From Ulva prolifera (lineage: Eukaryota > Chlorophyta > Ulvophyceae > Ulvales > Ulvaceae): a DNA stretch of 64,000 nt. This document shows positions 19,967 through 48,452 of the stretch, one piece after another. The stretch spans positions 4,971,658 through 5,035,657 of the forward strand of contig CM041196.1 in assembly GCA_023078555.1 (NCBI GenBank), written 5' to 3'. The translations under genes were made by a program, and so were the position numbers. The first letter of the stretch is position 1; each line of letters opens with the position of its first letter. The notes under the pieces are model-generated. The model did not search any database. It was not told the DNA's origin and saw only the letters and a program-made list of their open reading frames with translations.

Positions 19967-22900
19967 ATGCAGCTGCCAGTCGGATTCCTGCCCTCACAGC
20001 CCGCTCCCACAATCTCACCCACTCATCTCCCCGACATGCCCACGATCGCCCTCGTGGATACCAGCGCACATGAGAGTCTTGGATCAATTGCGCAGAGCAA
20101 GCTCGAAGAGTACATCGGGCGCGACCAGGTGCGCTGCAAATGCTGCAGACTAGGCCGTGTGCCTTCATGCAATGTTGACTTCTCGCATTGCCTACTGGCC
20201 CCACAACATCCCGATTGTGCTGTCACTGCTTCCTCGGCTTCATCTGGATCTGTTACTTACGGTCGAGTGCTTGCTTATTTATAGAGGTCATGTGTGTGTA
20301 TTTTGCAGGTGTTTGACATCTCTGGCACCCCCCCAGAGAAAGTCGTGCAGAACATGTTTGATCACCTGGAAGTCCTGATGGGGAATGACATCAGGGGAGC
20401 CTCCGAAGTACAGGCCCAGCTGCGGGTGCTGCTCATGGGTGATCACAAGCGTGTCTACCGCACCCTCCAGGTGCTCCCCCCCCCCCCCCCCCCCCCCCCC
20501 CCCCACAGCATGCCTGCATCCTCTCCTGAAACCTTTTCCAAAGCATCTCAGGCCACTTCACAACCTCGTCTGCGTGAGAGCTGAGTACTGTGGCTCTGGA
20601 CCCAGTGACTGCTGCCAGTGACTAGAGGATGTGACTATCGTGTCAGCTTCAGTCATTCTTTAGTAACCGCCCGCCATGTGGCTGGCCAAAACCAAGCTGC
20701 CGCTGCCTCAGCACATCTCTGTGTTTCCCTAGCATGCACTGCAGCTGTGCGGCGTTGAATGGGCCAGGTTGTTATGGCACTCCTGCAGTGGCCGGTCCTC
20801 CACGCACAACCCTGCCGAAGCCGGCTCAATCAAGCCCACACGCCTCCTCCACCTGGGACCCGGCTGCCCCTGCATCCCCCTGCGAAGGCCAAAGTGCACC
20901 TCACCAGCACCCACCCTCCAGCAGTGCCATGCTTACATGCATCTCGGCCACCCCGCATCTGAAGCATCCGCCTCGGCATCACATCAGCCCCCCCCCCCCC
21001 CCCCCCCCGCTTCCCACGATGTCATTCTCCCAGGTTTCGGGGCCACATGATCGCCCATACACGCGCCCGCATGTCACGCTGCAACACCACCAGCCCCGCA
21101 CGCCTCATCCCCCACCCGGCCTCGCACAACCAAACCCACGCTCGTTGATTTTCACCTTCCAATTCGTCAGTGCACCCCTGACCCCCGTGCACTCCCGCGC
21201 AGGCGTTCGTGCGGTCGAGGACCCTGCCGGAGGTGTCCCTCGCCATCGCGCCCCTCGGCAGCAGCAACGACATCTCCCGCTCCGTCGGCTGGGGATCCTT
21301 CAAGGAGGACTACTGGAGCAACTCGGCATACGTGCCCAACATGCTGAAGACCGTCGGCCTCGGGCGGCCGGTGTACGTGGACTGCTGGAGCGTGCGCGTC
21401 GCTTGCGACAAGAGCAAGAGCCTCATCTCCTCCGGCCTGCCAGAGTCGTTCCTCGACTCCCAGGAGGTGCGCCCCCCGCCCCCTGGACTTTGGCTCGATC
21501 GCCCCCTCTGCCGTGTGTGCATGCGTAGCTGTGCGTGTGTGTGTCTGTACTGCCCGCCTTACAGAAGCGCTCCGCGTGGGCGTCTCCTCGCAGCTGGGGA
21601 GCGTCCACATGTTCAAAGCGTGACAAGCAGATAAGCTCTTGGGCTGTGACTGTGCGAGACCGGGCCGGTGCGGCAGTCGGCCAGTGTGGGGTCCTCCGGT
21701 GGCTGTGCCGGCCGGTGCATGCACATGTGCGCGTGTGGTGTGTGTGGAGCTGACACAGCCGCGCGTTTCGCAGGGCGCCACCGGCAAGGTGTCGCTCGCA
21801 TGGAACTCGATGTACGTGGCTCTCGACGCGGAGGCCGCCAACGGCTTTGCGCGCCTCGCCGGCCCGCGCGCACTACGTGCCACCAAGCCCCCGCCCGCCT
21901 CCGCATCCTCCGGCAGCAAGCGCCGCATGTTCAACTGCTTCTGCGGCGCGCCCGCCAACACGATGCAGCCGCACCTCGAGATCCTGTCGCTGACGACGGG
22001 CGCGTGGCGCAAGGTCACGCTGCCGTCCGGCCTCTCGGCGATCATGGTGGAGAACCTGCCCAAGCGCTGGGCCAACGGCGACGACTTCTGGGACCAGGAC
22101 CGCGAGGTGCGTGCTCCCAAACCCCCCTGCTGCCTCTTGTTGTGCCTGCGCCTGCTGTTCATGCAGAGCAGCAGGGCCCGGCTGCCACGGGAGATCCCAC
22201 AGCGGCACCTGCGCTCTCAGTGTCGGGTGACACTCCTGTTGTTCTCTAGGGGACAGCCCAGTGCTGATAGGGTTTGGTGGTTGACAACCCCCATCCCCTC
22301 ACTGATCAGCGCTGGTAGCTGCCTGCTAGCTCGTGCACTGTGTCGGCATCTAAGCACTGCTGCCTGTTCCCACTGTGCACGGCAGCGCCCTCGTTTGTGC
22401 ATCAACGCTCGCAAGCGGTCGCACTTCCATGTTCCCACCGGCAAATCCAGTGGCGACAGCAAGCTGAGCGCGGCAGCCGCGACATGGTGTGTGCATGCAT
22501 GCAGGGCGACCAGCAGGCCCCCCCCGCGTACCACGACAAGCTGGTGGAGGTGTACGGCCTCACGCAGGGCGCCCTGCACCAGGGCTGGAACGTGCGGTCG
22601 GTCGAGAACCACACGAAGCGCCTCGGCCAGGGCGGCGGCGTGCGGCTGTACGTCCAGGCCTCCGAGAGCAACCACTCGGTGTACGTGCTCATGGACGGCG
22701 AGGACTGGTGGCAGAAGGTTCCGGCGGGTCGCAGTGACACCATCAAGAAGGACGGCATTCTCGTGCGCTGCCCCCCTTTCGCCCCTGCTGGGGACGTTTC
22801 GCTGCACATCTCCTGGATGCAGTGAGTCAATGCTGCTACCTCCTGCATGTCTAGATGGTCAGGTGTGTGCACAGATTTCGCATGGCATGGGAACGTCGTG

Positions 22901-25900
22901 GTGCCAATGCGCAGACCGGAAGGGGGACTGCGATTGGTGCACCCACAGGGTTGCAGTTTTGCGCCACGGGTACGTGCAAGGTCAGGCGGTCCGTGCCTGC
23001 AGCTCCAAGTGGCTAGGCATCTTCGGGTCGAAAGGGTCTGCACCTCTGAAAATGCAGAACGCGTGTGGTTAGTGATGTGTGCTGTCATGCAGTTCGAGAT
23101 GAGTCACCACGGCCAGACGCGTATCCTCGCCAACGCGTCCCCCCACGCCTCCGTCGGCAAGCCCAAGGCCGCAGCCTCCACGTCCATCTCCGCAGGCGGC
23201 CGCACCTCCTCTCGCCTCACCGCCGGCGGCCGCTCCGAGGGCGTGTCCGCCTCCGCCGAGGGCTCGAGCCCAGAGGTGGCGCTCGGCGCCTCCGCGGCCG
23301 CAGCAGCCGCCGCCGCCGGCGCCGGCATCGCCGTCGGCGCCGCTGGCAGCAAGGGTGATGAGGACTACCGGCCCCCGGAGGTGGAGGGCGGCACCCGCAT
23401 CGACGTGCCGGTGGTGCAGCTGGATACGCCGGAGGGGCCCTCTGGCGCAGTGCCTCTGGCTGACATGGAATCGCCTGGAGGTGGTGCAGGTGCGCAGCCG
23501 ACCTGGGCGTTTGCCGTTTGTCTCGTCGCCAGCTCCAGCAAGAGCCGGTGTCTGACGGCGGTAGGCGACCGCGTACGTAGAGTATTATTGCACTCGCATC
23601 TGCCACCTCTTCTTCAGCTGCAGCTGTCCCACACGATGAAATCAGGATCTGGCAGTTGTCTCATAGGTGCAGCTTGTAGGTGCTGCGTGTGCTCCGGAAA
23701 CAACGTTGCCGCCTGCGGTCTATCTATTCCACTGGTGCCATCTCAGAGCTGCATCATCTGCCAGCATTTGCCGGGACTCGTGTGATTCTATCACAGGCCA
23801 TTGATCTGCGACGCTTCCCTTGCAGCTGTAGCACCCCATGTTCCAATCATGCACCACAAACCAAACAGCTGCCGCGCTGCTGCAGTCATCGACGCGACCG
23901 GCGCGCCTCCGGCCGCCGACTCTGGCGACATCGAGGTTTCCGCAGCCCTCCCCGGCGCCGCCGTGTCTACCAGCGGCTCCAAGCGCAAGAGTGGCTTCTC
24001 CTTCCTGAACAAAGGCGCCTCCGCCAACGTGCCCTCCGCTGCATTCGATGCCGACTCCGCGGCTGTGGAGGGCTCTGCCCCCGGTGCTGACATCGACGTG
24101 TCAGGTCCGTCCGGTGCCGCCGGTTCTCTGCCGACCGTTGGTCTCGATGCGGACGGCCCGTCAGTCAGCTTTGATGCGCATGCATCGGATGCGCGCGGGC
24201 CGGACCTCGTGATCCCCGGCGCTGACGTGTCGATGTCCGGCACGCGGCCGAGCGGCAGCTTCCGCGCGTCCGGCACGCTGCCTGACGTCGGCGAGCCTCA
24301 TGGCATTCATGGGCCGGACATGACAATCCCGACTGGTGGTGCAACGATGCCCTCTGGCGAGGTCGGCGTGCCGTCCGGCGATGTGGACGTCGACATGCCG
24401 TCTGGCGATGTGTCCGCGCCAGATGTGCATGTGTCTGCGGGCGAGGGCCGCCTGGGATCGTACAAGGCTGGCGTTGCTGCTGGCGCTGCCGGTGTGGCTG
24501 GTGCGCTGGGTGCTGCTGGCGGGTATGCGGCTGGCAAGCTCAAGGGAGACAAGCCCGAGGTGGACGCAAAGCTGGATGCGCCCGATGTGGATGTGGATGC
24601 TCCGAGCGCGAGCCTGGATGTGGATGTGGACAAGCCGAAGAAGGGCTTCTTCTCTGGCATGTTTGGCCGCAAGAAGGGCGATGTCGACGTCTCTGCCAGC
24701 CTGCCAGGTGCGTGCTGCCGCCGCTGGCCACTACAAGATGCTCAGAGTTCTTGCAGTGCTGACTCGGGCTCTTCTGTCATTACTGACCATGTGGCATAAC
24801 CTGTTGCTGAAGCATAGCCGCACCTGGCCTCTCCAGAAGGACAGCATATAGTGGGCTGCTGAGTGAGCAGTATCGACCACGTGGCATGGCTTGTTGTTCA
24901 GAGACACAGGCACATCTCTGGTAGGGGAATGTGTAGTGGGCTGGTGTGGTTTATCCTGTATTGCTCGCCCATGCTACTAGGTCAAAGCTGTAGCACAGTC
25001 CGCTGGCATTATCCAGCAGCTGCGACCGCCTGGGTGACGTTGCATGCTGACATCTGCGACATGCGGCCCTGTTGCGGTGCTGTACAGTGTGATGTGATGT
25101 GCAGGCGTCGCGGGCTCCATGGATGTGCAAAGCCCAGACGTGGATGCGTCAATGCCATCGGCTGATGTTTCTGCTCCTGGATACAATGTATCAGTGCCAG
25201 ACGTGTCCCTGAAGACCCCAGATGTCGACGCCTCGTTGCCAACTGTAGACCTCAAGGTCCCAGAGGTGGATGCATCCCTGCCCACAGCTGACATGGACAT
25301 GCCGTCTGCTGATGCGCAACTGGACATGCCATCTGCTGATGTGTCAGCGCCAGATGTGCACGTGTCTGCACCAGAGGGCGGCCTGGATGCTGGCTCCCTG
25401 AAGGCCGGTGTTGCTGCTGGTGCTGCTGGCATGGCTGGTGCGCTGGGAGCTGCTGGTGGGTATGCTGTTGGCAAGTTCGAGGGAGACAAGCCAGAGGTGG
25501 ATGTGAAGGTGGATGCTCCCTCTGCAGAGTTCGCTATGCCCTCTGCGGAAGTCGACATGCCATCTGTGGACGTGGATGCGCCTTCAGCAAGCCTGGGTGT
25601 GGACAAGCCAAAGTCGAAATTCTCGATGAAGGGTCTCTTTGGGCGCAAGAAAGGCGACGTGGGCGCCTCTGCCAGCCTCCCAGGTGTGACAAAGCTAGGC
25701 TCCGTGGTCACCACAACAGCTTGTGTCCATGCTTACCATGGTGCTATCCCCATGTGCTTGAACGCAGTGCACAGATATGTTCAATCTCTGGCATCTCGTT
25801 CATTGTGCCGTACTCAGTCCCTGTGTCCTGACATGGAATTCTCAGAAGTGGAGGGACACAGCATTCAGTTCCTACCAGGCTTGTCCTCACAGCTGCAATT

Positions 25901-28900
25901 TGCAGAATTGAACAATGGTTATATGGCGAGAACGCTAGACCTTTCCTTCCTGGTTTGCAATGGTCTACATCGCCGCTGGCATGTTGCAGCTGCGCAGTTC
26001 TTGCGCAGCTGCCGATGCGAAAGACATCCAGCCCAAGCTCGTTCATCTCCCAGGTTGATTATTGTAAATTGACTCGAGGCATAGTTCCTTGCCCGCTAGT
26101 GCACAGAGAACTTTGTTTTCACTGGCGGCCCCGGGCGCAGGTGTGGATGTGGACGCGTCATTGCCATCTGCTGATGTGTCTGCTCCTGCATTCGATGCAT
26201 CGGCGCCAGACATGTCCCTGAAGACCCCGGATGTTGATGCCACTCTGCCAACGGTGGACCTTCAGATGCCACAGGTCGATGGGTCGCTGCCGACCGCAGA
26301 CATGAACGTCCCGTCTGCGGATGTGCACATGGACATGCCATCTGCTGATGTGTCAGCGCCAGATGTGCACGTGTCTGGTCCAGAGGGCGGCCTGGATGTT
26401 GGCTCCCTGAAGGCCGGTGTTGCTGCTGGTGCTGCCGGTGTGGCTGGTGCACTGGGCGCTGCTGGCGGTTATGCTGCTGGCAAGCTCGAGGGAGACAAGC
26501 CAGAGGTGGATGTGAAGGTGGATGCTCCCTCTGCAGAGTTCGCTATGCCCTCTGCGGAAGTCGACATGCCATCCGTGGACGTGGACGCTCCGTCAGCAAG
26601 CCTGGGTGTGGACAAGCCAAAGTCGAAATTCTCGATGAAGGGTCTCTTTGGGCGCAAGAAGGGCGACGTGGGTGCCTCTGCCAGCCTGCCAGGTGTGGCC
26701 ATCCCTGATACCATCCCAGATACCATCGTTACCAAGCAAGTCGACCTTGTTCAATGCTTTCCAAAGTACTGTTCTGTTGTCCAAGAAAGCATTCCCTTCA
26801 TGGCGAGGCCTCTGGCGAGTAACTTGCAGTTCTTCACAAGCACATCTGTCCTGGCATACTGTTATCATAAAAGAAGGGCAGCGATATTAGGCCTACTTCG
26901 CTTGTTCCCAAATTTGAAACTCGCTGATGCCAGTAATGCTGATGTCGAGAGAACGCTCGTCTGTCCTGTCTGTGCTGGTCTGCAGTTGTGTCATCCTGAA
27001 TATTTTGCTGAAGCGCCCAGTTCTTACGCAGCCGTTGATGCGCAGTACTGGTGTCATCTAGCCTGATTTCCGAATCTGTGTGTGACTAATACTGTATGTG
27101 CTGGAACTTGCATGTGGCAAACGTCGTCCTCTTGCCACTCCACATCGAAGTTTTTCTCACCGGCTGAAAGTGGGCGCAGGTGTAGACGTGGACGCCTCTT
27201 TGCCGTCTGCGGACGTGTCTGCCCCAGATGCTGGCATCTCCATGCCATCGGCTGATATCTCTGCTCCCGCATTCGATGCATCAGTGCCAGAGATGTCCCT
27301 GAAGACCCCAGATGTCGACGCCTCGTTGCCAACTGTAGACCTCAAGGTCCCAGAGGTGGATGCATCCCTGCCCACAGCTGACATGGACATGCCATCTGCT
27401 GATGTGTCAGCGCCAGATGTGCACGTGTCTGCGCCAGACGGTGGCCTGAACGTCGACTCTATGAAGGCTGGCGTCGCTGCCGGCGCCGCTGGCGTGGCTG
27501 GCGCGCTGGGAGCTGCTGGTGGGTATGCTGCTGGTAAATTCAAGGGAGACAAGCCAGAGGTGGATGTGAAGGTGGATGCTCCCTCTGCAGAGTTCGCTAT
27601 GCCCTCTGCAGAGTTCGCTATGCCCTCTGCGGAAGTCGACATGCCATCCGTGGACGTGGACGCTCCGTCAGCAAGCCTGGGTGTGGACAAGCCCAAGTCG
27701 AAGTTTTCGATGAAGGGTCTCTTTGGCCGCAAGAAGGGTGATGCTGGTGTTTCTGCCACCCTGCCCTCTGCAGACATCCCCACTCCCGAGATTGGTGTGT
27801 CGGCCTCGGCTGTCGAGGCTGCGCTGCCTTCTGCTAGCTTCAAGGCCCCAGATGTCGATGCCTCCCTACCCTCTGCAGACGTCTCCATGCCATCAGCGGA
27901 CATGTCTGCTCCTGCCATCGATGCATCGGCGCCAGACATGTCCCTGAAGACCCCAGATGTTGACGCATCGCTGCCAACAGTGGACCTGCAGATGCCGCAG
28001 GTCGAAGGGGCGCTGCCAACAGCTGACGTGGACGTCCCATCCGCTGATGTGTCAGCGCCAGATGTGCACGTGTCTGCACCAGAGGGCGGCCTGGATGTTG
28101 GCTCCCTGAAGGCCGGTGTTGCTGCTGGTGCTGCTGGCATGGCTGGTGCGCTGGGGGCTGCTGGCGGTTATGCCGCAGGCAAGCTCAAGGGAGATACGCC
28201 AGAGGTGGATGTGAAGGTGGATGCTCCTTCTGCGGACGTGGAGATGCCGTCTGTGGATGTGGATGCGCCATCTGTCGATATTGATGCCCCCTCTGCAAGC
28301 CTTGGAGTTGACAAGCCCAAGAAGTCCAAGTTTTCGATGAAGGGCCTATTCGGCCGCAAGAAGGGCGAGGCTGGTGTTTCAGCCACCCTGCCCTCTGCAG
28401 ACATCCCCACCCCCGAGATTGACGTGTCTGCCTCAGCTGTCGAGGCTGCACTGCCCTCCGCAGACGTCCCCATGCCATCAGCAGACCTCAAGGCCCCTGA
28501 TGTGGACGCCTCCCTTCCCTCTGCAGACGTCTCCATGCCCTCTGTTGACGTGTCTGCCCCAGATGCCGGCTTCTCCATGCCCTCAGCTGACATCACCACG
28601 CCAGAGGTGGACGCCTCGGTGCCAGACATGTCCCTGAAGACTCCAGACGTCGACGCCTCGTTGCCAACTGTAGACCTCAAGGTCCCAGAGGTGGATGCAT
28701 CCCTGCCAACAGCAGACATGGACGTGCCCTCTGCTGATGTGCAACTGGACATGCCTTCCGCCGATGTGTCAGCGCCAGATGTGCACGTGTCTGCGCCAGA
28801 GGGTGGCATGGACGTCGGCTCCCTGAAGGCTGGCGTTGCTGCTGGCGCCGCCGGTGTGGCTGGTGCGCTGGGAGCTGCTGGTGGGTATGCGGCTGGCCAG

Positions 28901-31900
28901 TTCAAGAGCGACAAACCAGAGGTGGATGTGAAGGTCGACGCTCCCTCTGCAGACGTTGACATGCCGTCTGTGGATGTGGATGCGCCATCTGTGGATGTTG
29001 ACGCTCCGTCAGCAAGCCTCGGTGGTGACAAGCCGAAGAAGTCCAAGTTCTCAATGAAGGGTCTATTTGGGCGCATGAAGGGCGATGCCGGTGTTTCTGC
29101 CACCCTGCCCTCTGCAGACATCCCCACCCCCGAGATTGACGTGTCTGCCTCGGCAGTTGAGGCTGCACTGCCTTCTGCCAGCTTCAAGGCCCCAGATGTC
29201 GATGCATCTCTGCCCTCCGCAGACGTCTCCATGCCATCAGCAGACCTCAAGGCCCCGGATGTGGACGCCTCCCTGCCCTCTGCAGGCGTCTCGATGCCCT
29301 CAATCAGTGGCAAGACACCAGAGGTCGATGCATCCCTGCCTTCAGCTGACCTCAAGGCTCCGGACATGGACATCGCCATGCCCTCGGCTGATATCGCCGC
29401 ACCAGCGGTCGATGTCTCGATGCCCGACATGTCTCTCAAGACACCAGACGTCGATGCCTCCCTGCCAACTGTAGACCTCAAGGCCCCAGAGGTGGATGCA
29501 TCACTCCCAACGGCCGACATGACAGTTCCCTCTGCTGATGTGCACGTGGACGTGCCATCTGCTGACGTCTCGCCCCCAGATGTGCATGTGTCTGCGCCGG
29601 AGGGTGGCCTGGACGTTGGCTCCCTCGGGGCTGGTGTTGCCGCTGGCGCTGCTGGCATGGCTGGTGCGCTTGGCGTGGCTGGTGCGCTGTCTGGCGACAA
29701 GCCGGAGGTCGATGTGAAGGTGGATGCTCCCGATGTGGACATCGATGCCCCGAGCGCGAGTCTGGAAGCGGGCAAGCCCAAGAAGGGCTTCTTCAAGGGT
29801 CTCTTCGGCCGCAAGAAGGGCGACGTTGACGTTGGTGTGCTATCTTCATGCCCAATCATATCTGGTACCTCTGTTCATTTGCCTTTGATCAGCTCGTGCC
29901 ATTGTTGGTCATTTTGTCTGCAATCCCCCTAAATGCATGGCCTGCTTTGAGTGATGGTGAGTTGAAAATTATCAATGAGATCGTGTGCCAGCTTCTCACC
30001 ATCTCAACCTTGCACCGCATGTTGTGACAGTTTGAGGTCTCCAGGCTGCCGCTATGAGCGCCCTCAGATCTGCAAGTGCATATCCTCATCTGTATCATCC
30101 GTTCAGGTGGCTCCATGGATGTGTCCGGCCCGGACGTCGACGCGACCCTGCCCTCAGCAGCGGCTGACCTCTCCGCTCCTGCCATCGATGCTGGCATCTC
30201 TGCTCCCGACGTGGACGCCTCACTGCCTGCAGCAGACGTCACAGTTCCCTCTGTGGACGCCACTCTGCCTTCAGTCGGCGCGTCGGCTCCTGACGTCGAT
30301 GTCGAGGTGCCAGACATCTCCGCACCTGGCTTTGACGTCTCTGCTCCCGCTGCTAAGGTTGATATGGCAGCCCCAGATGTGGACGCCGCGTTGCCATCCG
30401 CTGATGTGGATGTTCCGGCAGTCGATGTCAACGTCTCTGCACCCGACGCTGATGCCAACACCTTCACGCCCGGCCTTGCTGCCGGCGCCGCGAGCGTCGC
30501 TGGCGCGCTCGGCGCTGCCGGCGCGCTCGCGGGCGCCTCCCTCAAGGGCGACACGCCAGAGGTCGACGTGAAGGTCGATGCGCCCTCTGCAGATGTGGAC
30601 ATGCCATCTGTGGACGTGGATGCGCCGTCTGTGGACGTGGAGGGCGTCTCCGCGTCGCTGGACAAGCCCAAGAAGTCGTTCTTCAAGAGCATGTTCGGGC
30701 GCAAGAAGAGTGACGCCTCGGCCTCTCTGTCTGGTGCGAGCCTGCCCCACTTCTCCGACTCGCAGCCTTGCTACGGTGGCTCAATGCATGTAACAGCAAA
30801 TCCACTGTTTTGCATCAACCCTTCTCGTATTATGTTCCTGAAATAAGTAACACATGCCGTGCAGTTGTCCATTGTGTAGAGTTTAGTGCTGCAGCGCGTC
30901 TGTGTGTAACCTTGAGAGGTACTCAATGGACTTTGTGAGCTGTCGCGATTGCATTGTTTGATGATGATCTCTTTGATCTGCTAGAGGCGCATGTGCTGCC
31001 CAGGTTGTCTACTCCCATCGTCATAGCTCATCTGAATCTGAGCAAGCTGTGGATGTGCGTTCGTTCGTTATCCAGAGGCTGCTGGTCGTTATTGCAGTGT
31101 TTCCTCATGCAGGCGCCGTGGCGACACCCGAGCTTGATGCCTCCCTGCCCTCTGCAGATGTGAGCATGCCCGGTGTCTCTGCAGAGGCCCCTGGCATCTC
31201 TCTGCCAACAGTGGATGACTACGCAGGCAAGGCTGATGTCTCCCTGCCGACAGCCGATGTCTCCCTGCCGACGGCGGATGTCTCTCTGCCCTCTGCAGAT
31301 GTGAGCATGCCTGGCATTTCGGGCGATGCGCCTGGCGTGTCTCTGCCAACAGTCGATGCGTATGCAGGCAAGGCTGATGTCTCCCTGCCTTCAGCAGACA
31401 TGTCCGGTCCAGACTTCAGTGGCGTCGCTCCTGCAGTGGACGCCTCCCTGCCAACCGTTGACCTGCAGGCACCGCAGCTTGATGTCGATGCAGGGCTGCC
31501 CTCTGCTGACGTCAGCATGCCTGCTGTGGATGTGGACGCCTCGATCCCATCTGCTGATGTCGAGGTGCCAGCTGTGGTCGTCTCCACACCAGAAGGCGAA
31601 GGCGGCACGCTCATTCCTGGTGTTGCTGCTGGCGCGCTCGGCGCTGCCGGCGCGCTCGCGGGTGCCTCTCTCAAGGGTGACAAGCCAGAGGTGGACGTGA
31701 AGGTTGATGCGCCCTCTGCGGATGTGGACATGCCCTCTGTGGACGTGGATGGGCCGTCTGTTGATGTGGACGGACCGTCTGGATCGCTGGGAGTGGACAA
31801 GCCGAAGAAGAGGTCCCGGTTCTCGATGAAGGGCCTCTTTGGCCGCAAGAAGAGCGATGCCTCTGCCAGCCTCCCAGGTATGCTGCCTCTGCATTGGTTT

Positions 31901-34900: not shown

Positions 34901-37900
34901 GAAGCTGTACTGTGAGCGTGTTGGTGTGCATCAACTGTCTATTTCCTCGGCCACCTGCTGGTGCACTTGAGCTCCAACGCCCTCTCATACCTGTTGAGTT
35001 GCTTCTTCCTATGAGACACAATGCCAGAGTGCTGCAAGGGTGCACTAGCTGGATGCAGGAGCCTCTGCTGCCCTGGAGGTGCCCAGCGTGGATGCCGGAG
35101 CTTCTCTGCCTTCTGCAGACATCACTATGCCTTCAGTCGATGCCGCGATGCCAGCCGTAGACATCAAGGCTCCTGAGGTCGATGCCTCGCTACCCTCCGC
35201 AGACGTGGCCGTGCCTGAAATCGATGCCTCCCTACCATCAGTGGATGTCTCCGCCCCGGGTTTCACCACACCTGAGTTTGGCACTTCCATGCCCTCTGTG
35301 GATGTCTCTGCTCCGGCTGTAGACTCCTCCATGCCTGAGGTTGGGGCCTCCATGCCTGAAGTCGATGTGTCTGCACCCACCATGGACACCTCACTGCCAG
35401 CTGTTGACGCCTCGCTGCCAACGGCCGACATCTCTCTGCCTACAGCTGACGTATCTGTACCAGACGCTGACGCCTCACTGCCCTCGGCTGATGTGTCCCT
35501 CCCAACAGTTGACGCCTCACTGCCAACGGCTGACGTGTCACTACCTGTTGTTGATGTGTCAGTCCCATCGGCTGATGTCGATGGCTCCATGCCGACCGTC
35601 GGTGTCACCGCCCCAGAAGTCGATGTGGACGCTCCTGAAGGTGGTATCTCCATGCCTGGCGTCGCTGCTGGAGCCACGGCCGTGGCTGGTGCTCTGGGCG
35701 CTGCTGGCCTGCTTGCCTCTGACAAGCTCTCTGGAGAGACGCCTGCGGTGGACGTCAAGGTGGATGGCCCCTCTGTCGGTGCCGATGCTCCGTCAGTGGA
35801 CGTGGACATGCCTTCTGTGGATGTGGATGGCCCATCTGTGGATGTTGACGCTCCCTCTGCAAGCCTCGGTGTTGACAAGCCGAAGAAGAAGTCCAAGTTC
35901 TCGATGAAGGGCCTCTTCAGCCGCAAGAAGAGTGACGCCTCCGCCAGCCTGCCAGGTCTGTTTCTTTGATGTAATGTGTGAGGCTGTTGATGTAGCTTTC
36001 GCGGTGTTGATGTTTGGGGTGTTTGCATCAGTAGATGTCAGGCGTGATGCTCATAGCAGCATCATTCCTGGACTGGAGACATGCACTGTGATGCTTCGCA
36101 TCGATGTTGGCATGTTGTGTGTCTGATCGTGTGTAATCAATGGCGCACTGTTGCCTGCTGATGCAAGCGCCCATTCCAGTTCTCAGTGCTGTCTCATTGA
36201 TGCGAGATGCTCGTGAAGGACAAGGAAGCCTTTGAAGCCTGCGTTTCTTACATTCGCTGAGCATTTCATGTGCTCCTGCAGGTGCCTCGGGCGGTCTGGA
36301 AGTGCCCAGCGTCGACACCAGTGCTGCTGCACCCTCTGCAGACATCACCATGCCTTCGGTCGATGCCTCGATGCCACCCGTCGATGTCCAGGCACCCGAA
36401 GTCGACACCACGTTCCCTGCGGTGGGCACTTCAGCACTCACGCCTGATGTTGTCCTGCCTCAAGCCGACATCTCTGCACCCGAGGTGGACGCCTCGATGC
36501 CTTCGGTCGATGTCTCTACACTGAAGGCTGATGCCTCGCTGGCAGGCGCGGGTGTCTCTATGCCTGAGGTGGACGCTTCTGTGCCAGGAATTGATGTGGC
36601 TGTACCCTCAGTCGACGCAGTACTGCCTGCTGCGGACATGGCTGCACCAGAGGTGGATGCCTCGCTTCCCACGGCTGATGTGTCGCTGCCAACGGCTGAC
36701 ATCTCACTCCCAGCAGGCGATGTGTCGCTGCCATCAGGCGATGCTTCTCTGCCAGCTGGTGATGTGACAGCCCAGGTGGTTGATGTGGACGGCTCGGTGC
36801 CAACCGTCGAGGTCACGGTCCCTGAAGCGGCCGTGGATGCTCCTGAAGGTGGCATCTCGGTGCCTGGCATCGCTGCCGGCGCTGCAGGCATGGCTGGTGC
36901 TCTGGGCGCTGCTGGTGCACTCGCCTCTGGCAAGTTCTCTGGCGAGGCGCCCGCAGTCGACGTGAAGGTGGATGCTCCCTCTGCAGATGTGGACATGCCC
37001 TCTGCTGATGTTGACATGCCATCCGTGGATGTCGATGCGCCATCAGTGGACATGGATGCTCCATCAGCAAGCCTCGGGGTGGACAAGCCGAAGAAGAAGT
37101 CCAAGTTCTCGATGAAGGGCTTGTTTGGCCGCAAGAAGGGTGACGCGGGTGTCTCTGCCACCCTGCCTTCTGCAGACATCCCTACCCCCGAGATTGGCGT
37201 GTCTGCCTCTGCTGTGGAGGCCGCGCTGCCCAGCGCCAGCCTCAAGGCCCCGGATGTCGATGCCTCCCTGCCCTCTGCAGATATCTCCATGCCATCGACA
37301 GACTTCAAGGCCCCAGATGTGGACGCCTCCCTGCCCTCAGCAGACATCGCCATGCCTTCGGTCGATGCCTCGATGCCATCCGTGGACGTCAAGGCACCTG
37401 AGATTGACACTTCGCTGCCCTCAGTGGATGTCCCAGCACTCAAGGCAGATGCTTCTCTGCCCACGGCTGATGTCTCTTCGCCTGAGATGGATGTTTCGCT
37501 GCCTTCGGTCGATGTCTCTGCATTCAAGGCCGATGCATCGCTGCCAGGCGCCGATGTGTCTGTGCCTGAGGTGGACGCTTCCCTGCCATCGGCTGATGTG
37601 TCCCTCCCAACAATTGACGCCTCACTGCCAACGGCTGACGTGTCACTGCCTGTGGTTGATGTGTCAGCCCCATCGGCTGATGTCGATGGCTCCATGCCGA
37701 CCGTCGGGGTCACCGCCCCAGAAGTCGGTGTGGACGCTCCTGAAGGTGGTATCTCCATGCCTGGCGTCGCTGCTGGTGCCACGGCCGTGGCTGGTGCTCT
37801 GGGCGCTGCTGGCCTGCTTGCCTCTGATAAGCTCTCTGGCGAGACGCCTGCGGTGGATGTCAAGGTGGACGCTCCCTCTGTGGATGTGGATGCTCCCAGT

Positions 37901-40900
37901 GTTGATGTTGACATGCCGTCTGTCGATGTGGATGCGCCTTCCGTGGATGTTGACGCTCCCTCTGCAAGCCTCGGTGTGGACAAGCCCAAGAAATCGAAGT
38001 TTTCGATGAAGGGCCTCTTCAGCCGCAAGAAGGGTGATGCCGGTGCCTCTGCCAGCCTCCCAGGTGTGACACATCCGTAGCCTTGACAACATTGTACTTG
38101 TATACCTTTGAAGTGGTTGGGTTTGGCTGCAATGGAGTTGCATGCGTTCATCACTCTTCACATCACTTCCTGGACAGAGAATCCTTGTGTGTTCCAATTT
38201 AGACCGATTGGAGCAGCCAATCACTCCGTGAGTGCAGCCTTGCACTAGTGCTGATCGTGTGAAATATACAGTCCTGTGCCAGAGTATCCCAGTGTGATTT
38301 GGCTATACATCAGTAGTACACACAGAATCAAGCAAACAGATCAAGTGTGGCCCACACCATCACCCGACCCTCCATTGCGATGGCTCCGAACAGTACTGTG
38401 GTGCACAGTACGTTGTGCATGTGTGTTCCCAGTTTAAAAGAATGTCTTCTTGCCCTCAGGTGCCTCAGGTGCTCTCGAGGTGCCCAGCGTGGATGTGGGT
38501 GCTTCCATGCCCTCTGCAGACATCGCCATGCCTTCGGTCGATGCCTCGATGCCACCCGTGGACGTCAAGGCACCTGAGCTTGACACTCCGCTGCCCTCAG
38601 TGGATGTCCCAGCACTCAAGGCTGATGCTTCTCTGCCCACAGCTGATATCTCTGCTCCTGAGATGGATGCCTCCCTTCCTTCGGTCGATGTCTCTGCACT
38701 GAAGGCTGATGCATCGCTGCCAGGCGCCGACATGTCTGTGCCTGAGATGGATGCTTCTGTGCCAGATTTCGATGTGTCTGCTCCTAAGGTGGATGCCTCG
38801 CTTCCCACGGCTGATGTGTCGCTGCCAATGGCTGACATCTCACTCCCAGCAGGCGATGTGTCGCTGCCATCAGGCGATGCTTCTCTGCCAGCTGGTGATG
38901 TAACGGCCCAGGTGGTTGATGTGGACGGCTCGGTGCCAACTGTCGAGGTCACGGTCCCTGAAGCGGCCGTGGATGCTCCTGAAGGTGGCATCTCGGTGCC
39001 TGGCATTGCCGCCGGCGCTGCAGGCATGGCTGGTGCTCTGGGCGCTGCTGGCGCCCTCGCCTCGGACAAGTTCTCTGGCGAGGCGCCCGCAGTCGATGTG
39101 AAGGTGGATGCTCCCTCTGTGGATGTGGACATGCCCTCTGCAGATGTTGACATGCCGTCCGTGGACGTCGATGCGCCATCTGTGGACATGCCATCGGCAG
39201 ATGTCACTGCGCCGTCGATCGACGTGGACGCTCCCTCCGCAAGCCTCGGGGTTGACAAGCCCAAGAAGTCCAAGTTCTCGATGAAGGGCCTCTTCAGCCG
39301 CAAGAAGGGCGATGCCGGTGCCTCTGCCACCCTGCCCTCTGCAGACATCCCCACACCCGAGATTGATGTGTCTGCCTCAGCTGTGGAGGCCGCGCTGCCC
39401 AGCGCCAGCTTCAAGGCCCCGGATGTCGATGCCTCCCTTCCCTCCGCAGACGCCTCCATGCCATCAGCAGAATTCAAGGCCCCGGATGTCGATGCCTCCC
39501 TGCCCTCGGCAGATGTGTCTTTGCCAGCTGTTGAAGCGTCGATGCCACCTGTGGACACCAGCGCACCTGAGGTTGATGCGTCTCTGCCCTCTGCGGATGT
39601 ATCCCTCCCCACTGCAGACATCTCCATGCCCTCGTTTGATGGCAAGGCACCAGAGGTCGATACCTCTCTGCCCAGCTTCAAGGCCCCAGATGTCGACGCC
39701 TCGATGCCAAGCGTCGATGTCGCTGCTCCAGCTATTGACGTTTCCTTGCCCACTGTTGACCTCAAGGCACCGGTTGTGGATGCATCCATGCCTTCAGCTG
39801 ATGTCGAGGCCCCAGCAGTTGACACGGAGTTGCCTTCTGCTGACGTCCAGATGCCAGCATTGAGTGCATCTGCCCCGGAGTTCAAGCCGCAAGGTGATGC
39901 CAGCTTCAGCACAGGAGCCCTTGGCGCTGGTCTGGGTGCAGCAGGCGCTGCTGGTCTTGCTGGTGTGGCGGGCGCTTTCTCTGCTGACAAGCCTGAGGAG
40001 CCTTCCTCTGGGCTCAATGTGGATGCGCCGGGTTTGAATGTGGACATGCCGGACGTGGATGCCTCGGCGTCGGCGTCATTGACCGGCGAACAACCCAAGA
40101 AGAAGTCATTCTTCAAGAGCATGTTCAGCCGAAAGAAGGGCGGTACGTGCTGCTTCAGCTTCAGTGCTCCCACACAAACAGCCTCACACATCTGATCACT
40201 CCCTCAGCCCTGTTGATTTACCATGGTGCATTCCGAATCAGTCGTACTGTCTTTCACAGACTTGCAGCTGCCTTGCCTCAAGGCCACACAGTGCATTTTG
40301 GCTTGCATTTCGTAACCAACGGCTGTTCTGCCCTGCACAGTTCAGAGGCTGTCCTGCTATGTTGCACTGTTACCTACACTATGTATGCCTAGCTGAGATG
40401 GTGTGGCTACGCTGCAGGTGCCTCAGGCGCTATCCCGTCCCCCGATGTCTCAGCTCAGGGCTTCTCCGCAAGCGCCGCTGGCCCCGATGTCGACGCGTCG
40501 GCCCCCGGGTTCTCCATCGACGCCTCCGCCCCCGACGCCAGCATCACCACCCCCGACGTGGACATGGCAGCCCCGGACGCGGCCGTGGCGCTGCCAGACC
40601 TCCAGGCTGGGGACATCTCGATGCCCCCGGGAGAAGCCACCATCGCCGCCGGCGCCACCCTCCCGACCGTCGACGCGCCCGATGCGGACGTTGACATCTC
40701 TGCCCCGGAGGTCACGCTTCCGGCTGTCGATGCGTCCCCGCCAGAGGCTGGTGTTGACGCCTCGCTGCCCAGTGCAGACGTCGCTCCGCCAGTGGTCGAT
40801 GTGTCCGTGCCGACCGCCGATGCTGCGGTGCCGGCTGTCGGTGTGCCCGCTGCGGAGTTCGGCGCAGATGTGCCGTCCGTGGATGTGGATGTGGGCGGGC

Positions 40901-41199
40901 CTGCGGCCGATGCGGATGTGCCGTCGGTGGATGTGCCGGGCGCTTCCGCGGTCCTGAAGCCGAAGAAGTCGTCTCTGTTCAAGGGCATGTTTGGCCGCAA
41001 GAAGGACATGACTGGCAGCTTGCCTGGTGTGCCCCGGCCCACGCGCATGCTCCGTGCTCTCAATCAGACGGGGAGTCTGCAAGTTTGGCAGAAGCTACTT
41101 GGTGGGCCCGATGCATCACGGGCATTGCCATACATGATGTGGTGCTTGCGGCAGCATCAGTCCTGACCCGCAGCCGCTGTGCCAGTACACATGCATGTA

Positions 41200-41271
<72 letters not shown>

Positions 41272-44200
41272 GAACAGAAGTTATTTTGTGGGTGTGGAGG
41301 GCACTGCTCCGGTGCTCTGCCACGCAGCTGTTCTCATCACCAGAGCCCCGGGTTGTCAACAACATCACACAACCTAATTCCAACGTGCCTGTGCTGCTGC
41401 AGAGCCCGAGGTGACCCTCAGCGGGCCCACCGTCTCCGCCGACGTGCCGGAGTTTACGCCACCAGACGCCGCCGCCGGCTCCGTCGCAGCCGCGCTGCCC
41501 ACCGTCGACGCAGCCACCCCGGCCGTCGACGCCGCCGCCCCGGCCCTCGACCTGCCCACGGCAGACGCCGCCGCCCCTGAGGCCTCTGCTGGCCTCGACG
41601 TCAGCGCGCCGGACGTGTCGGCCGCGCTGCCCGCGATCGATGCCGATGTCAGCGCCCCCGGCACCACTGCGGAGCTTCCAGGCGTTGAGGGCATGTCTGG
41701 CGCGATTGGCGGTAGCGGAAAGAAGAAGGGCAGCCTGTTCAAGGGCCTCTTCGGCCGCAAGAAGGGCGAGACCTCCGGCCTGCCTGAAGCCGACATCGGA
41801 GGTCCGCACCTTTCCTGTTCTATGAGGCCTACGTCGTGTGATTGTACGGCGGTGCTCAAATGCTCTCACTCACGGCCATCAGTGCACCGGCTGCTGATCC
41901 TGGCTGTTTGTGGAGCTGTTTCGTTCGGTCACCGCCATGTCTTTTTCACAACCTCTGCAGATCTACATTGCAGCTTGAGCGAATCACATGCACAGCTCGA
42001 CGCTGATGTTGTGACAATGTGTTGCAGTGGACGCGTCGGTGCCGTCGGCGCACGCGGACATGCCGCACGGCGACATCTCGATGCCGAGTGCGATGGTCTC
42101 CGTGCCATCCTCGGACGCCGCGGCGCCCGCGGCAGACCTGACCATCCCGGAGGGCGATGTGGTCGTGCCACCTGTGGACATGGACATGACCGGGGCTGCC
42201 GTGCCAATGGGCTCGTCTCCCCTTGACGGCACTTTGCCCTCCGCGGACGTCTCTCTGCCTTCGGCAGACATCACGCTGCCGTCAGGAGAGGTGTGTTTCT
42301 GCCCATGCACCCGAGCGACCCTTCCAGATAGCCCACTCTCCGTTTTCAACTGGTCTCGTCATCATGCAGCGGTGGCCCTTACGCCCATCATGCATGTGGC
42401 AAGTCGCACCAAATTCGTCATGCATGTGGCAAGTCGCACCAAATGCGTCTGCTCCCCATTGACCCTCCCCGTTGAGACAAAAGCGGAGACAGGATTCCAC
42501 ATCATGCGTGGCTTGTGCAGGTGGATGCATCGCTTCCGTCCGCCGGTGCGGCTGCGCCCGCAGCGTCCGCGGACTTCTCCACACCGGACATGTCTGGATC
42601 GGCAGGCGCCTCGGCGCCGGCCGTCGGCGTGGATGCGAGCCTACCGTCCCTCGGCACAACCGCCGAGGCGCCGGCGGCGAGCTACGGCGGGAATGCCGAG
42701 AAGCCGACCAGCAAGGGCAAATTCAGCGGCCTCTTCCGGCGGAAGCGCAAGGGCTCGGTTGACGCCGACGCCTCTGCGGGGCTGCCGGGAGTGTCTGCCG
42801 CGCTTGGTGGTGTTGCCGCCAGCCTCCCAGGTCCGCATCTGCCCCTTTCCTCGCACCCCCCGCCTCTGCCAGCCTCGCTACAGCGACACCGTGGTCGCTG
42901 TACTGGACATCACTGTGGGGCGAACTGTGGCGGTGGTGTCTAGCTGCGCTCGTACCATCCAGCACTGGTCCCGCACTCGCCATGGATGACCCATCTGGTG
43001 TCTTTAGGTGCTGACCGCGATGGCGTGATTGCAGGTGTGGGTGCTTCAGTGGACTCGCCAGAGGTGTCCACACCGGCGCTGGACGCGACGGCGCCGTCCG
43101 TCAGCGTCACCGGTGCCACGCCAGTCGTTGACCTCGACGCCGGAGCGGACACGTCACTCACGTCCATGACCGCCAATGCCTCCGTCACCCCCGCCGGCTC
43201 GGAGCTGCCCTCCATCGCCGCCGACGTGTCACCCCCATCGCTCGCCACGCCAGCAGACGTGTCGCTAACGCCCCCGTCCGCCAGTGGCGCCACCCCGGAC
43301 CCCTCAGCATCCGCGGCTCTGCCCCTGGGCGCGATTGAAGCGGAGCTGACGGCTGACGATCTCAACCTTGCACCAGCGCCACCGGACACCGGCGCGTCGA
43401 GCATGTACGCTGAGCCCCCAACGGTCCGCGCGGACCCCGCAGTGCCCTCGGCTGATGCCAGTGGTGACGGCGTGTCGATGTCTGTTGGGTCGTACGCCGC
43501 CGCGGCCGCCACAACGGCGGCCGGTGCGGCTGTGGGGCTCAGCGGCGCTGACGAGGCGCCGAGCAGCGACAAGACCTCGACCAAGTCGAAGATCCGGAAG
43601 CTGTTCACGCGGAAGAAGGGCAACAAGGGCTCCCTGGAGCAGGAGGCCTTCTCTGGCGCGCTTACAGGCACGTTCCGCTGCTGCCGCGCACCCAGACTAC
43701 GGCCTATGCGTGTGGCCCCCCCCCCCCCCTTGTGCAAGGCGGTCCATGACAACACACGCGCACAAGCAACGCTATTGCTTCTGCACCGCTTTTGTTCACA
43801 TGCACTGCCACCGTGGGATTGTCGCCAGAATCACACATGCTTGCCTCGGGCCTGCCTCCAGAGTAGCTCTCTGACTCGGGAGGCGCGACGGTGCAGGCCA
43901 GCTTGACACCCCATCCCAGGATGTCTCCCTGCACGGCCCAGACGCCACCGTTCCAGAAGCCAATGCATCGTTCGAGGCCCTCCCCCACGCGGACCCCGGC
44001 ATCTCAGCCCCCCTCTACCCGCCCGGAACCTCCGTCGGCCTCGCCGAAACCTCGCCGGTCGGGGTCTCCATTGGTGGCGGCCCCGGCATCGCTGAGGAAA
44101 CCGCCGAGCTGCCCGCTGGCCCCTCGGCCAGTGTGACCCCGGAGCTCTCGTCCGGCGTGTCAGCTCCGTTGGCGGGCGCCAGCAGCAGCAGCGGGCGGCG

Positions 44201-45626
44201 CTCCAACCGCCACACGTTCTCGATGAGCCGCCGCAAGAAGCCGACGGCTTCGGACTCTGGGCCGCTCGGGGCTATGGTGCGCTCCTCTCTGCCCCTGTGG
44301 CCATGCCGTCGCATGTGTGCGCACCCGTCCATACTTTGTTTCTGGCTGCCTCTGCATGGACAGCCCTTTCTTGTCTTACACTAACACACACACACACACA
44401 CAGAGTCATTCAGTTTCAGTCGTGTGGTTTGCCTGAGCGTGTTTTTCAGTACATTGTTCAACGCAAGCCTCTGTTGGAAGGTCCGGATGCGAAGCCTGTT
44501 GTATCTGATCAACAAAGAGGGGGTCATGTGCTGAGCGGGGCGAGATGGTGCAGAGTGCCGGCAACAGCATGCTGGATGATGAGGCAGCCACGGCGCCGCT
44601 CGAGGGCGAAGCTGGCACCTCCCGCAGCCGCCTCAAGTCGATGTTCTCGCGCAGCAAGCGCAAGTCCCGTGGCGAGTCACTGACGCTGTCGCCCCCAGAG
44701 GCCGCAGCCACCGAGGCCGATTTCCCCTCCGCCGTCGCCTTCAACATCCCCTCCGGCCAGAAGGTCAAGCATCCGCCGCCAAAGCTGACTGCGCGCGAAC
44801 ACGAGGAGGCGGAGGCCGCACGCGCCGCAGCGCAGGCCACGCCGGCAGGGGTCGGAACCGTCCGGGCCCCCCCCAGCACGCCCCCGCAGCTGCAGATGCC
44901 CACACAGGGCGCCCAGGCATCGCTCTACCCTGACCTCAAGCCTGAGGTGTGGCCCCATCCCACCCCGGCCTCGTCGCCCATGCATCGTGCATTCACATCC
45001 CTCGGCTGCATTGACTTGCGTCTGTATGTTGTGCTGCCAGGGCTCGCGGCTCGTGGCTGCATCTGTGCATATTTGTTCAATATGGGGAATCTGCAGTGTG
45101 GCAGAGCTGCTTGCAGCCGTTGAAAATTGCACAGATGGGTGATGGTGGCTGACTACAGGGTGTGTGTATGTGTAGTCAGAGACGGTCGTGGGCGGGGCGA
45201 CACACGACGGGAAGCCCTTCGAGGGTACCCTTGCGGAGGTGCCGCCAATGGGCCGCATTGAGCTCCCGTCTGAGCAGTCCACTGGCTCCGCCATTGCGGT
45301 GTGGCCCTGATAACCCCTGCTTCTGCCCCTTCTCTCTCAAGGCAATGTCCTCTGTGATCGGTACAACGATTGCCCATGCTTCTCGAGCCGATGAAGGCGA
45401 GGATTGGCTACTGTTTTTGAAGTGGGAGACTGTGCATGGTCAGGATGACTCGTTGCGATCTCTACTGAATTCCCTCTTGTGGTCAGATAAGCTTTCAGTA
45501 TGTGTGGTCTGCGCTGATGTGGCCATGCTGTGTGTGCAGTCGCAGCCGGTGCAACTGACCAAAGCAGAGGAGATGGATGACGAGGACAAGACGGAGGATG
45601 ACTCTAAGAACTGCATCATCATGTGA
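19967..45626 (+). CDS. Giant DGK-like / AHNAK-like repeat protein with CaaX end
   Basis: Twenty-five exons join with every phase consistent: 19967-20128, 20309-20470, 21203-21466, 21774-22106, 22505-22762, 23093-23489, 23886-24707, 25105-25683, 26141-26692, 27180-29834, 30107-30733, 31113-31877, 32265-34823, 35059-35955, 36282-38063, 38460-40142, 40418-41026, 41403-41801, 42028-42290, 42521-42830, 43035-43667, 43897-44276, 44554-44946, 45176-45298, 45540-45626. The product is about 5,897 residues. Residues 1 to about 420 are a diacylglycerol kinase fold; about 526-5,170 are acidic V-D-x-P repeats with basic motifs; a Pro/Ala/Ser tail ends in CIIM. The acceptor at 43008 is an in-frame alternative to 43034, and the intron after 43667 would be GC-AG. 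The first in-frame ATG (19967) was taken as start, but an upstream exon is possible. A membrane scaffold role is inferred; no named family is claimed. Confidence 0.8.
20476..20504 (+). repeat. Poly-C tract at intron start (29 bp)
   Basis: Twenty-nine C begin five bases inside the intron whose donor is GTGCT at 20471. Confidence 0.95.
20988..21008 (+). repeat. Poly-C tract (21 bp), same intron
   Basis: A second C run in the 732-bp intron 20471-21202. Confidence 0.95.
23886..41801 (+). repeat. AHNAK-like coding repeat array with basic motifs
   Basis: Twelve exons encode tandem modules of roughly 190-270 residues. Each has a run of 9-13-residue units (for example [17 protein letters not shown]), a block [12 protein letters not shown], a Gly/Ala-rich stretch of about 22 residues, a VDVKVDAPS block, and then a basic motif such as [19 protein letters not shown] count 19 basic motifs here. 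Exons at 27180, 32265, 36282 and 38460 hold 4, 3, 2 and 2 modules; the others hold one each. Every exon enters and leaves in phase 1, and most end just after S-A-S-L-P-G. The hydrophobic-acidic P-x-V-D rhythm recalls vertebrate AHNAK, and the basic Phe/Ser/Lys motif recalls the MARCKS effector domain; both are resemblances of pattern, not shown homology. Confidence 0.85.
41197..41269. repeat. AT dinucleotide microsatellite
   Basis: About 36 TA/AT units with one early interruption, inside the intron 41027-41402 of the giant gene. Confidence 0.95.
43716..43729 (+). repeat. Poly-C tract (14 bp)
   Basis: Fourteen C about 48 bases into the probable GC-AG intron 43668-43896. Confidence 0.95.
44384..44402. 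repeat. CA dinucleotide microsatellite
   Basis: A short (AC)n run in the intron 44277-44553. Confidence 0.9.
45540..45626 (+). other. Terminal exon with CaaX prenylation box
   Basis: The last exon encodes an acidic tail ([15 protein letters not shown]) ending in C-I-I-M before TGA. A cysteine fourth from the end, two aliphatic residues and a terminal Met fit a farnesyltransferase CaaX site. The phase-0 junction from 45298 and a TGTGTGCAG acceptor support the exon. Prenylation is inferred. Confidence 0.7.
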
Positions 45627-48181: not shown

Positions 48182-48323
48182 TTCCGCAACTGTGGTGCAA
48201 GCGATTTGCTCCAGGCTCAGACCCTAGCTGACAACGTGCAATGATCCCGGCCTTCCGCAACTGTGGTGCAAGCGATTTGCTCCAGGCTCAGACCCTAGCT
48301 GACAACGTGCAATGATCCCGGCC
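48182..48323 (+). repeat. Tandem duplication, 71-bp unit x2
   Basis: Two copies of a 71-bp unit beginning TTCCGCAACTGTGGTGCAAG, at 48182-48252 and 48253-48323, read as identical. They lie in the spacer between the convergent beta-barrel and GWD genes, within the likely 3' UTR of one or both. Confidence 0.9.
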
Positions 48324-48452
48324 TCGCAGAAATTTGCTAACTCATGCGGCATGCGGACACGCCACAGCATCGACACACTGGTCATGGAGTCAGAACTGGC
48401 TGATCACAGGGTCACCATTGGACAGACCACGCCAGCTGGGAGGCAGGAGTGC

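What the first reader, a model, noticed from the sequence alone, without database searches (positions are those of the whole stretch)
19967..45626. Undescribed architecture: dead DGK head, AHNAK-like repeat body, CaaX tail
Seen: one exon chain of 25 exons with all phases agreeing joins a diacylglycerol-kinase fold, about 4,600 residues of V-D-x-P repeats and a terminal CIIM. Known: DGKs act on membrane lipid; AHNAK is a giant membrane-associated scaffold; CaaX boxes anchor proteins in membranes. Inference: a giant multivalent membrane scaffold of an alga that has converged on AHNAK-like design. I know of no named family with this order of parts.
Basis: partly seen in the sequence, partly recalled or inferred. 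Interest (0 to 1): 0.9.

Follow-up and report, generated by a model that had tools for sequence, protein, structure and literature searches.

The report
Giant algal scaffold with dead-kinase head
A photosynthetic alga carries one 25-exon gene for a giant, highly acidic protein with a degenerate lipid-kinase head, thousands of residues of short repeats punctuated by positively charged, greasy patches, and a lipid-anchor signal at its end, which suggests a membrane scaffold that resembles animal AHNAK but arose separately.

Summary
The gene structure is confirmed by sequence: 25 exons (19967-45626, +) splice in frame to 5,897 aa, 578 kDa, pI 4.05. The head is a diverged diacylglycerol kinase, 28% identical over 418 aa to a DGK elsewhere in this genome, with matching introns. 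It looks dead: GGDGT has become MGDHK. The body is under purifying selection (median dN/dS 0.19 between units). Likeness to AHNAK is unchanged when heptad order is shuffled, so it is heptad-level only, as convergence predicts. The zipper-to-patch module recurs in unnamed metagenome ORFs and, more weakly, in Ectocarpus. The tail is CIIM, the only Cys outside the head. No second protein joining head and repeats was found, but proteins above about 4,420 aa could not be seen, and no transcript was available. Best reading: a prenylated, multivalent, acidic-lipid-binding membrane scaffold. The architecture is well supported; the function is inferred.

The parts
19967..20128 (+). exon 1: start of pseudo-DGK head (canonical FINSRSGG region degenerate: [10 protein letters not shown]); true N-terminus uncertain
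   Evidence: codon score weak
20309..20470 (+). exon 2: pseudo-DGK, carries MGDHK in place of GGDGT
   Evidence: no GGDG or GDGT in any + frame of 18-24 kb
21203..21466 (+). exon 3: pseudo-DGK, PLGSSND in place of PLGTGND
   Evidence: relative P0001
21774..22106 (+). exon 4: DGK accessory domain, with MFNCFCG cysteine patch
   Evidence: DAGK_acc 7.6e-10; P0001
22505..22762 (+). exon 5: DGK accessory domain (MDGEDWWQ)
   Evidence: donor chosen in the light of the paralogue
23093..23489 (+). exon 6: end of DGK ([12 protein letters not shown]) continuing into Ser/Gly/Ala linker; ties head to body
23886..24707 (+). exon 7: first repeat exon, phase 1-1; two basic patches (codons from 23996 and 24647), one zipper
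   Evidence: relatives P0002 (95%), P0005 (64%), P0007 (62%)
25105..25683 (+). exon 8: one unit (heptads, zipper, VD array, patch from 25620)
26141..26692 (+). exon 9: one unit, patch from 26629
   Evidence: AlphaFold2 pLDDT 50
27180..29834 (+). exon 10: four units, patches from 27704, 28331, 29048, 29789
30107..30733 (+). exon 11: one unit, patch from 30679
31113..31877 (+). exon 12: one unit, patch from 31820
32265..34823 (+). exon 13: three units, patches from 32948, 33674, 34766
35059..35955 (+). exon 14: one unit, patch from 35898
36282..38063 (+). exon 15: two units, patches from 37106, 38000
38460..40142 (+). exon 16: two units, patches from 39275, 40109
40418..41801 (+). exons 17 (40418-41026) and 18 (41403-41801): heptads and patches from 40975, 41735, no zipper by the pattern used
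42028..42830 (+). exons 19 (42028-42290) and 20 (42521-42830): heptads; patch from 42719
   Evidence: exon 20 codon score low
43035..43667 (+). exon 21: Ala-rich segment and patch from 43589; GC donor
   Evidence: similar ORF P0038
43897..44946 (+). exons 22 (43897-44276) and 23 (44554-44946): patches from 44214, 44629
45176..45298 (+). exon 24: 41-residue linker
   Evidence: codon score barely over 95% of intron windows
45540..45626 (+). exon 25: acidic tail ending CIIM (CaaX) and stop
   Evidence: only Cys outside the head

Best explanation
A single gene encodes a giant scaffold that works on the cytosolic face of membranes. The head descends from a duplicated diacylglycerol kinase that lost its nucleotide loop, and probably serves as a lipid- or partner-binding domain, not an enzyme. 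About 5,000 residues of acidic, probably disordered VDxP heptads act as spacers. Once per unit (mean spacing 224 residues) a short Lys/Arg patch with Phe/Leu/Met ([17 protein letters not shown] type) inserts into or binds acidic lipids, as the MARCKS effector domain does; 24 such patches give strong, avid binding. Ala/Gly zippers promote self-association. A prenylated C-terminal Cys (CIIM) pins the far end. Net effect: a protein carpet that sequesters acidic lipids and organises or reinforces the membrane. Shown here: parts, order, reading frame, selection, loss of the loop. Inferred: lipid binding, zipper pairing, prenylation, scaffolding.
For: Spliced model. Head: 28% identity over 418 aa with a DGK of the same genome, shared introns; DAGK_acc 39.8 bits, cut-off 27; MGDHK breaks the GXGXXG/A ATP site required in plant DGKs (passages of PMC5293798); P0001 shares PI(S/G)xSND and [18 protein letters not shown], so the altered head exists elsewhere. 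Body: dN/dS median 0.19, 118 of 118 usable pairs below 1; 24 patches, net +4 to +8, zippers net 0, the rest of the body net -655. MARCKS comparison: Lys hold PIP2 and Phe insert in the bilayer; DGK-zeta itself has a MARCKS-like stretch (passages of PMC4607481). Tail: CIIM; PPTA-type prenyltransferase subunit repeats at two places of the genome.
Against: No transcript, localisation or lipid-binding datum. phmmer of the head found no DGK in the PDB sequences, and the six-frame DAGK_cat search passed the window over; DAGK_cat is below its cut-off. AlphaFold2 gave no confident structure for a unit (pLDDT 50.4). Hydrophobic moments of the [10 protein letters not shown] patches are modest (0.27-0.39), so a simple amphipathic helix is not indicated. 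Exons 1, 20 and 24 have weak codon support. PPTA repeats also occur in Rab geranylgeranyl transferase (recalled), so farnesylation is not shown.
Confidence: 0.5

Rival explanations
1. A stress protectant of the LEA/dehydrin style: a giant disordered hydrophilic protein whose basic patches, like dehydrin K-segments, coat membranes during drying or freezing; head and CaaX merely locate it.
For: Disorder-like model, extreme acidity. A related metagenome ORF, P0023, has GFLSKIKDKLP after a Gly-rich segment, which resembles a dehydrin K-segment (recalled motif).
Against: CaaX and a DGK-derived head are not dehydrin features (recalled); P0023 did not show the zipper-patch pair in my scan; habitat and expression unknown; no dehydrin model was tested specifically beyond the Pfam scans.
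Confidence: 0.2
2. Two genes: an ordinary diverged DGK (exons 1-6) and a repeat protein (exons 7-25) joined only by the reader's and my splice choices.
For: No second protein joining the two was found; the exon 6-7 join rests on one 396-base intron.
Against: Exon 6 has no stop before its donor and runs from the DGK end into a Ser/Gly/Ala linker; phase 1 meets phase 1; exon 7 has an in-frame acceptor and no nearby repeat-frame start.
Confidence: 0.12
3. The head is an active lipid kinase with an unusual nucleotide loop, so the protein is an enzyme on a long tether.
For: The Asp of GGDGT and the ND of GTGND remain; some pseudokinases are active (title and abstract of PMC9403797 in the listing).
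Against: Both Gly of the loop and the Thr are gone and the SGG motif is lost; P0001 has PISKSND.
Confidence: 0.08
4. A true AHNAK homologue by descent or transfer.
For: phmmer hits to AHNAK/AHNAK2 down to 9e-114; Pfam DUF4097 fires on exon 15 (23.1 bits, cut-off 22.9) and is precomputed on several AHNAK rows.
Against: Best-domain scores of 4 named AHNAKs are not above 40 heptad-order shuffles (49.5 v 46.6, 51.8 v 52.1, 44.9 v 37.5, 34.6 v 37.1); no PDZ in the head; 66 of 67 giants lack a zipper by my pattern.
Confidence: 0.05

Closest known systems
AHNAK / AHNAK2
   Same: Giant (AHNAK2 is 5,795 aa with 24 units, passages of PMC8833689 and PMC10682155), heptad VDxP-like repeats with basic or hydrophobic interruptions, tripartite, acidic.
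   Different: PDZ head instead of pseudo-DGK; units of 128 or 165 aa against 46-364 (mean 224) here; no Ala/Gly zipper; no CaaX was looked for; likeness not above heptad-shuffled controls.
MARCKS and its effector domain
   Same: Clusters of Lys with Phe and Ser; 13 sites of [KR]FSxK form here compare with RFSF/GFSF in the effector domain (sequence printed in PMC4607481).
   Different: One 25-residue patch and N-myristoylation in MARCKS; 24 shorter patches and a CaaX end here. No homology claimed.
Plant/algal diacylglycerol kinases, and DGK-zeta
   Same: Catalytic plus accessory domain order, intron positions shared with this genome's other DGK; DGK-zeta also joins a DGK to a MARCKS-like stretch.
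   Different: Nucleotide loop lost; followed by a 5,000-residue repeat body.
Unnamed algal-type repeat ORFs P0005, P0007, P0011, P0016 and P0021 (Ectocarpus sp.), P0017, P0022, P0030, P0038
   Same: Heptads, Ala/Gly zipper mostly ending L(S/K)GDK/RP, then VD array, then K-rich FG/LF patch, in that order.
   Different: Fragments; head and tail unseen. Only P0005, P0007, P0011, P0017, P0030 and, barely, P0038 beat all their shuffles; P0016, P0021, P0022 did not.

Membership tests
Active diacylglycerol kinase | ATP-site GXGXXG/A (GGDGT) | tested here: not met
   MGDHKRV in the aligned place; no GGDG/GDGT in + frames of 18-24 kb; consensus from passages of PMC5293798
Active diacylglycerol kinase | Pfam DAGK_cat over cut-off | tested here: not met
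   16.3 bits, cut-off 23.6
DGK by descent | accessory domain and alignment to a DGK over its length | tested here: met
   DAGK_acc 39.8 bits, cut-off 27; 28% over 418 aa
AHNAK family | N-terminal PDZ domain | tested here: not met
   Pfam scan of the 465-aa head gives only DAGK models
AHNAK family | repeat units of about 128 or 165 aa | tested here: not met
   patch spacing 46-364, mean 224
AHNAK family | similarity beyond heptad composition | tested here: not met
   4 of 4 named AHNAKs score within the range of 40 heptad-order shuffles
CaaX proteins | C-terminal C-a-a-X | tested here: met
   CIIM at the stop in the model
CaaX proteins | prenylated in the cell | not testable with these tools
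   PPTA repeats present in the genome show at most that a prenyltransferase exists
MARCKS-type effectors | Lys/Phe/Ser patch that binds acidic lipid | tested here: inconclusive
   24 patches by sequence; binding not testable
MARCKS-type effectors | N-myristoylation (N-terminal Met-Gly) | tested here: not met
   model begins MQLP, though the start is uncertain
Dehydrin/LEA | K-segment | not tested
   only a recalled likeness in P0023

The most novel reading that the evidence does not exclude
A new family of giant prenylated lipid-corralling scaffolds, built by exon duplication (13 exons symmetric in phase 1-1) from a zipper-plus-basic-patch module that green-type and brown algae share, and capped in this lineage by a kinase-dead DGK that senses or holds DAG/PA; an independent invention, in photosynthetic cells, of what AHNAK does in animals.
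Probability: 0.3. Interest if true: 0.82.

Novelty: new variant of a known kind. Interest (0 to 1): 0.6.

Why it matters
If true, cells without AHNAK evolved a giant membrane scaffold of the same style from different parts. That would let one ask which features such scaffolds need (acidic spacers, periodic lipid-binding patches, end anchors), and it would give plants and algae a pseudo-DGK, a kind of protein I found no description of in nine searches of open-access papers (capped listings).

Tried and rejected
Rejected: AHNAK homology (shuffle control); a canonical glycine loop hidden in an alternative exon; the first exon-5 donor at 22795, replaced at 22762 after comparison with the paralogue. 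An exon at about 21567-21624 reading [18 protein letters not shown] was considered and dropped because its phase fits neither neighbour.

Led nowhere: AlphaFold2 of a repeat unit (pLDDT 50.4); PDB sequence searches (no meaningful match); viral contigs (none); Pfam on ten flanking stop-to-stop ORFs (none). TGTAA, a polyadenylation signal of green algae by recall, lies 631 bases after the stop, but occurs 30 times on the + strand of the window and 8 times between 19000 and the stop, so it says little.

Limits: the three homologue searches scored about 8,000 candidates each (7994, 7992, 7983). The last used a 2,526-residue query, so only proteins of about 1,389-4,420 aa were candidates and a full-length orthologue could not appear. 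Words for the patches and zippers were patterns I wrote after reading the protein. The zipper-patch pair pattern rang in 38 of 128 proteins: 10 of algal type and 28 of one bacterial family (two named Clostridia) where the K-rich stretch precedes a hydrophobic segment, so the pattern alone is not specific. Two bacterial proteins (P0006, P0019) also beat all 40 of their shuffles, so beating shuffles is not proof of kinship. In one search P0016 scored 22.1 bits with bias 15.2, no more than several AHNAKs; what differs is that its match runs from zipper to patch (model positions 12-96), while the named AHNAK matches read in the listing begin near position 34-40 or, for AHNAK2 P0066, P0087 and P0107, at 22 and 4-5 without an Ala/Gly zipper in the matched stretch. 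Only the best 45 matches were printed, none a reversed decoy. dN/dS used 16 of the 17 zipper blocks, which are not independent.
Full report
Gene model. The chain of 25 exons between 19967 and 45626 on the + strand was rebuilt by hand from three-frame translations and spliced in a script. It gives 5,897 residues without an internal stop, 578 kDa, pI 4.05. Introns are 180-732 bases; 23 of 24 begin GT, one GC; 22 end CAG, two TAG. Exons 7-18 and exon 21 are symmetric in phase 1, the pattern expected if the body grew by exon duplication. No two introns resemble each other at E 1e-3, while the units they separate do, so the likeness is kept by selection on protein. Between 16 unit blocks dN/dS has median 0.19 and is below 1 in 118 of 118 usable pairs of 120.

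The head. Pfam finds the DGK accessory domain over its cut-off and the catalytic domain only below it. Elsewhere on the same contig (C1 about 2562.3-2565.5 kb, minus strand) lies a DGK with SRSGG, GGDGT and GTGND. Head and this DGK align over 418 residues at 28% identity. In that alignment introns 1, 2, 3 and 5 fall at the same residue and intron 4 one residue off, all phase 0; a second aligner (MAFFT, same call) agrees for 1, 2 and 5, is one column off for 4, and does not align 3. The exon-5 donor was picked with this comparison in view. In the head SRSGG reads SAHES, GGDGT reads MGDHK and GTGND reads GSSND. The plant ATP-site consensus GXGXXG/A (passages of PMC5293798) is not met, and no GGDG or GDGT exists in any + frame of 18-24 kb. 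The single homologue found by the head search, P0001 (unnamed ENA ORF, 34% identity, E 1.9e-30), shares the same departures in its part ([26 protein letters not shown]), so the altered head is not private to this genome. Against: neither the PDB sequence search nor the six-frame DAGK_cat search recognised the head.

The body. Prolines are spaced by 7 in 342 of 636 intervals. One is a basic-aromatic patch, 24 copies, net charge +4 to +8 over 17-21 residues, most often [19 protein letters not shown], closing the units of exons 7-18. The other is an uncharged Ala/Gly-rich segment with small residues every 3-4 positions, 17 copies in exons 7-16, plus one Ala-rich stretch in the linker and one in exon 21. 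The remaining 4,461 residues after position 520 carry net charge -655. Thirteen patches contain [KR]FSxK, a shape seen in the MARCKS effector domain, whose Lys hold PIP2 and whose Phe enter the bilayer (passages of PMC4607481). AlphaFold2 gave no confident fold for a unit.

AHNAK or not. AHNAK and AHNAK2 dominate the long hits. For four named ones the best-domain score with one unit is no better than after shuffling the order of their heptads, while residue shuffling abolishes it. The likeness is thus in the heptad, as convergence predicts. A defining PDZ is absent and unit length differs (family description from passages of PMC10682155 and PMC8833689).

Relatives. P0002 (95% over exon 7), P0005 and P0007 (64% and 62%) are unnamed metagenome ORFs of the same exon; P0038 resembles exon 21. 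P0011, P0017, P0022, P0030 (unnamed) and P0016, P0021 (named Ectocarpus sp.) show zipper, VD array and patch in the same order. A profile of 16 blocks spans zipper to patch in P0002, P0005, P0007, P0017, P0011, P0030 and P0016. Strength varies: P0017 41.3 bits, P0016 22.1 with large bias; P0016, P0021 and P0022 did not beat all their shuffles, and two bacterial proteins did. Kinship with brown algae is therefore likely but not shown.

The tail. Exons 23-25 join in phase 0 and end SKNCIIM. The protein has five Cys, at 169, 176, 251, 253 and 5894: four in the head, none in the body, one at the CaaX position. Codon support is good for exon 23, fair for 25, marginal for 24. PPTA repeats occur at two places in the genome. 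That a terminal Met favours farnesylation is recalled, not tested.

Reading. The parts favour a membrane scaffold: many weak acidic-lipid contacts, self-association, an end anchor, and a head from a DAG-binding enzyme. A dehydrin-like protectant is the main functional rival. Both rest on inference. In print I found nothing on such a protein: one paper with AHNAK and green algae, on wound repair; passages read; none with AHNAK and Ectocarpus; listings only, capped.

Noticed in passing
host genome C2:8149240-8149347 (-), locus L026: A 36-residue stretch 69% identical to the repeat unit ([32 protein letters not shown]) whose continuation looks shifted out of frame; probably a decayed dispersed copy.
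   Followed up: partly
host genome C1 about 2562283-2565493 (-), loci L023-L025: A DGK gene with intact motifs and two GC-AG introns among five, used here as the comparison gene.
   Followed up: yes
P0006, P0012 (bacteria; P0006 named Thiolinea) and P0019/P0035 type (P0035 named Clostridia): Bacterial proteins with VDxP-like arrays and Ala/Gly segments, in the second type behind a sigma-factor-like N-terminus (PF08281 precomputed on some rows); an independent, undescribed-looking architecture.
   Followed up: no
P0032: A metagenome protein with PDZ models and GGVKGFFKGIGGKIKAP patches between VDxP-like heptads: an AHNAK-like protein with its own basic-aromatic patches.
   Followed up: no
P0023 and P0030: ORFs sharing DGHVMTVGE(Y/F)(I/V)D; P0023 also has GFLSKIKDKLP, which looks like a dehydrin K-segment (motif recalled).
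   Followed up: no
head residues 246-253 (exon 4): [10 protein letters not shown]: a basic-aromatic stretch with two Cys, and a similar RFGCLACG in P0001; possible palmitoylation site, inference only.
   Followed up: no
window 41198-41268: A (TA)35 tract inside intron 17.
   Followed up: no
window 48182-48324: A perfect two-copy 71-base tandem duplication downstream of the gene.
   Followed up: no
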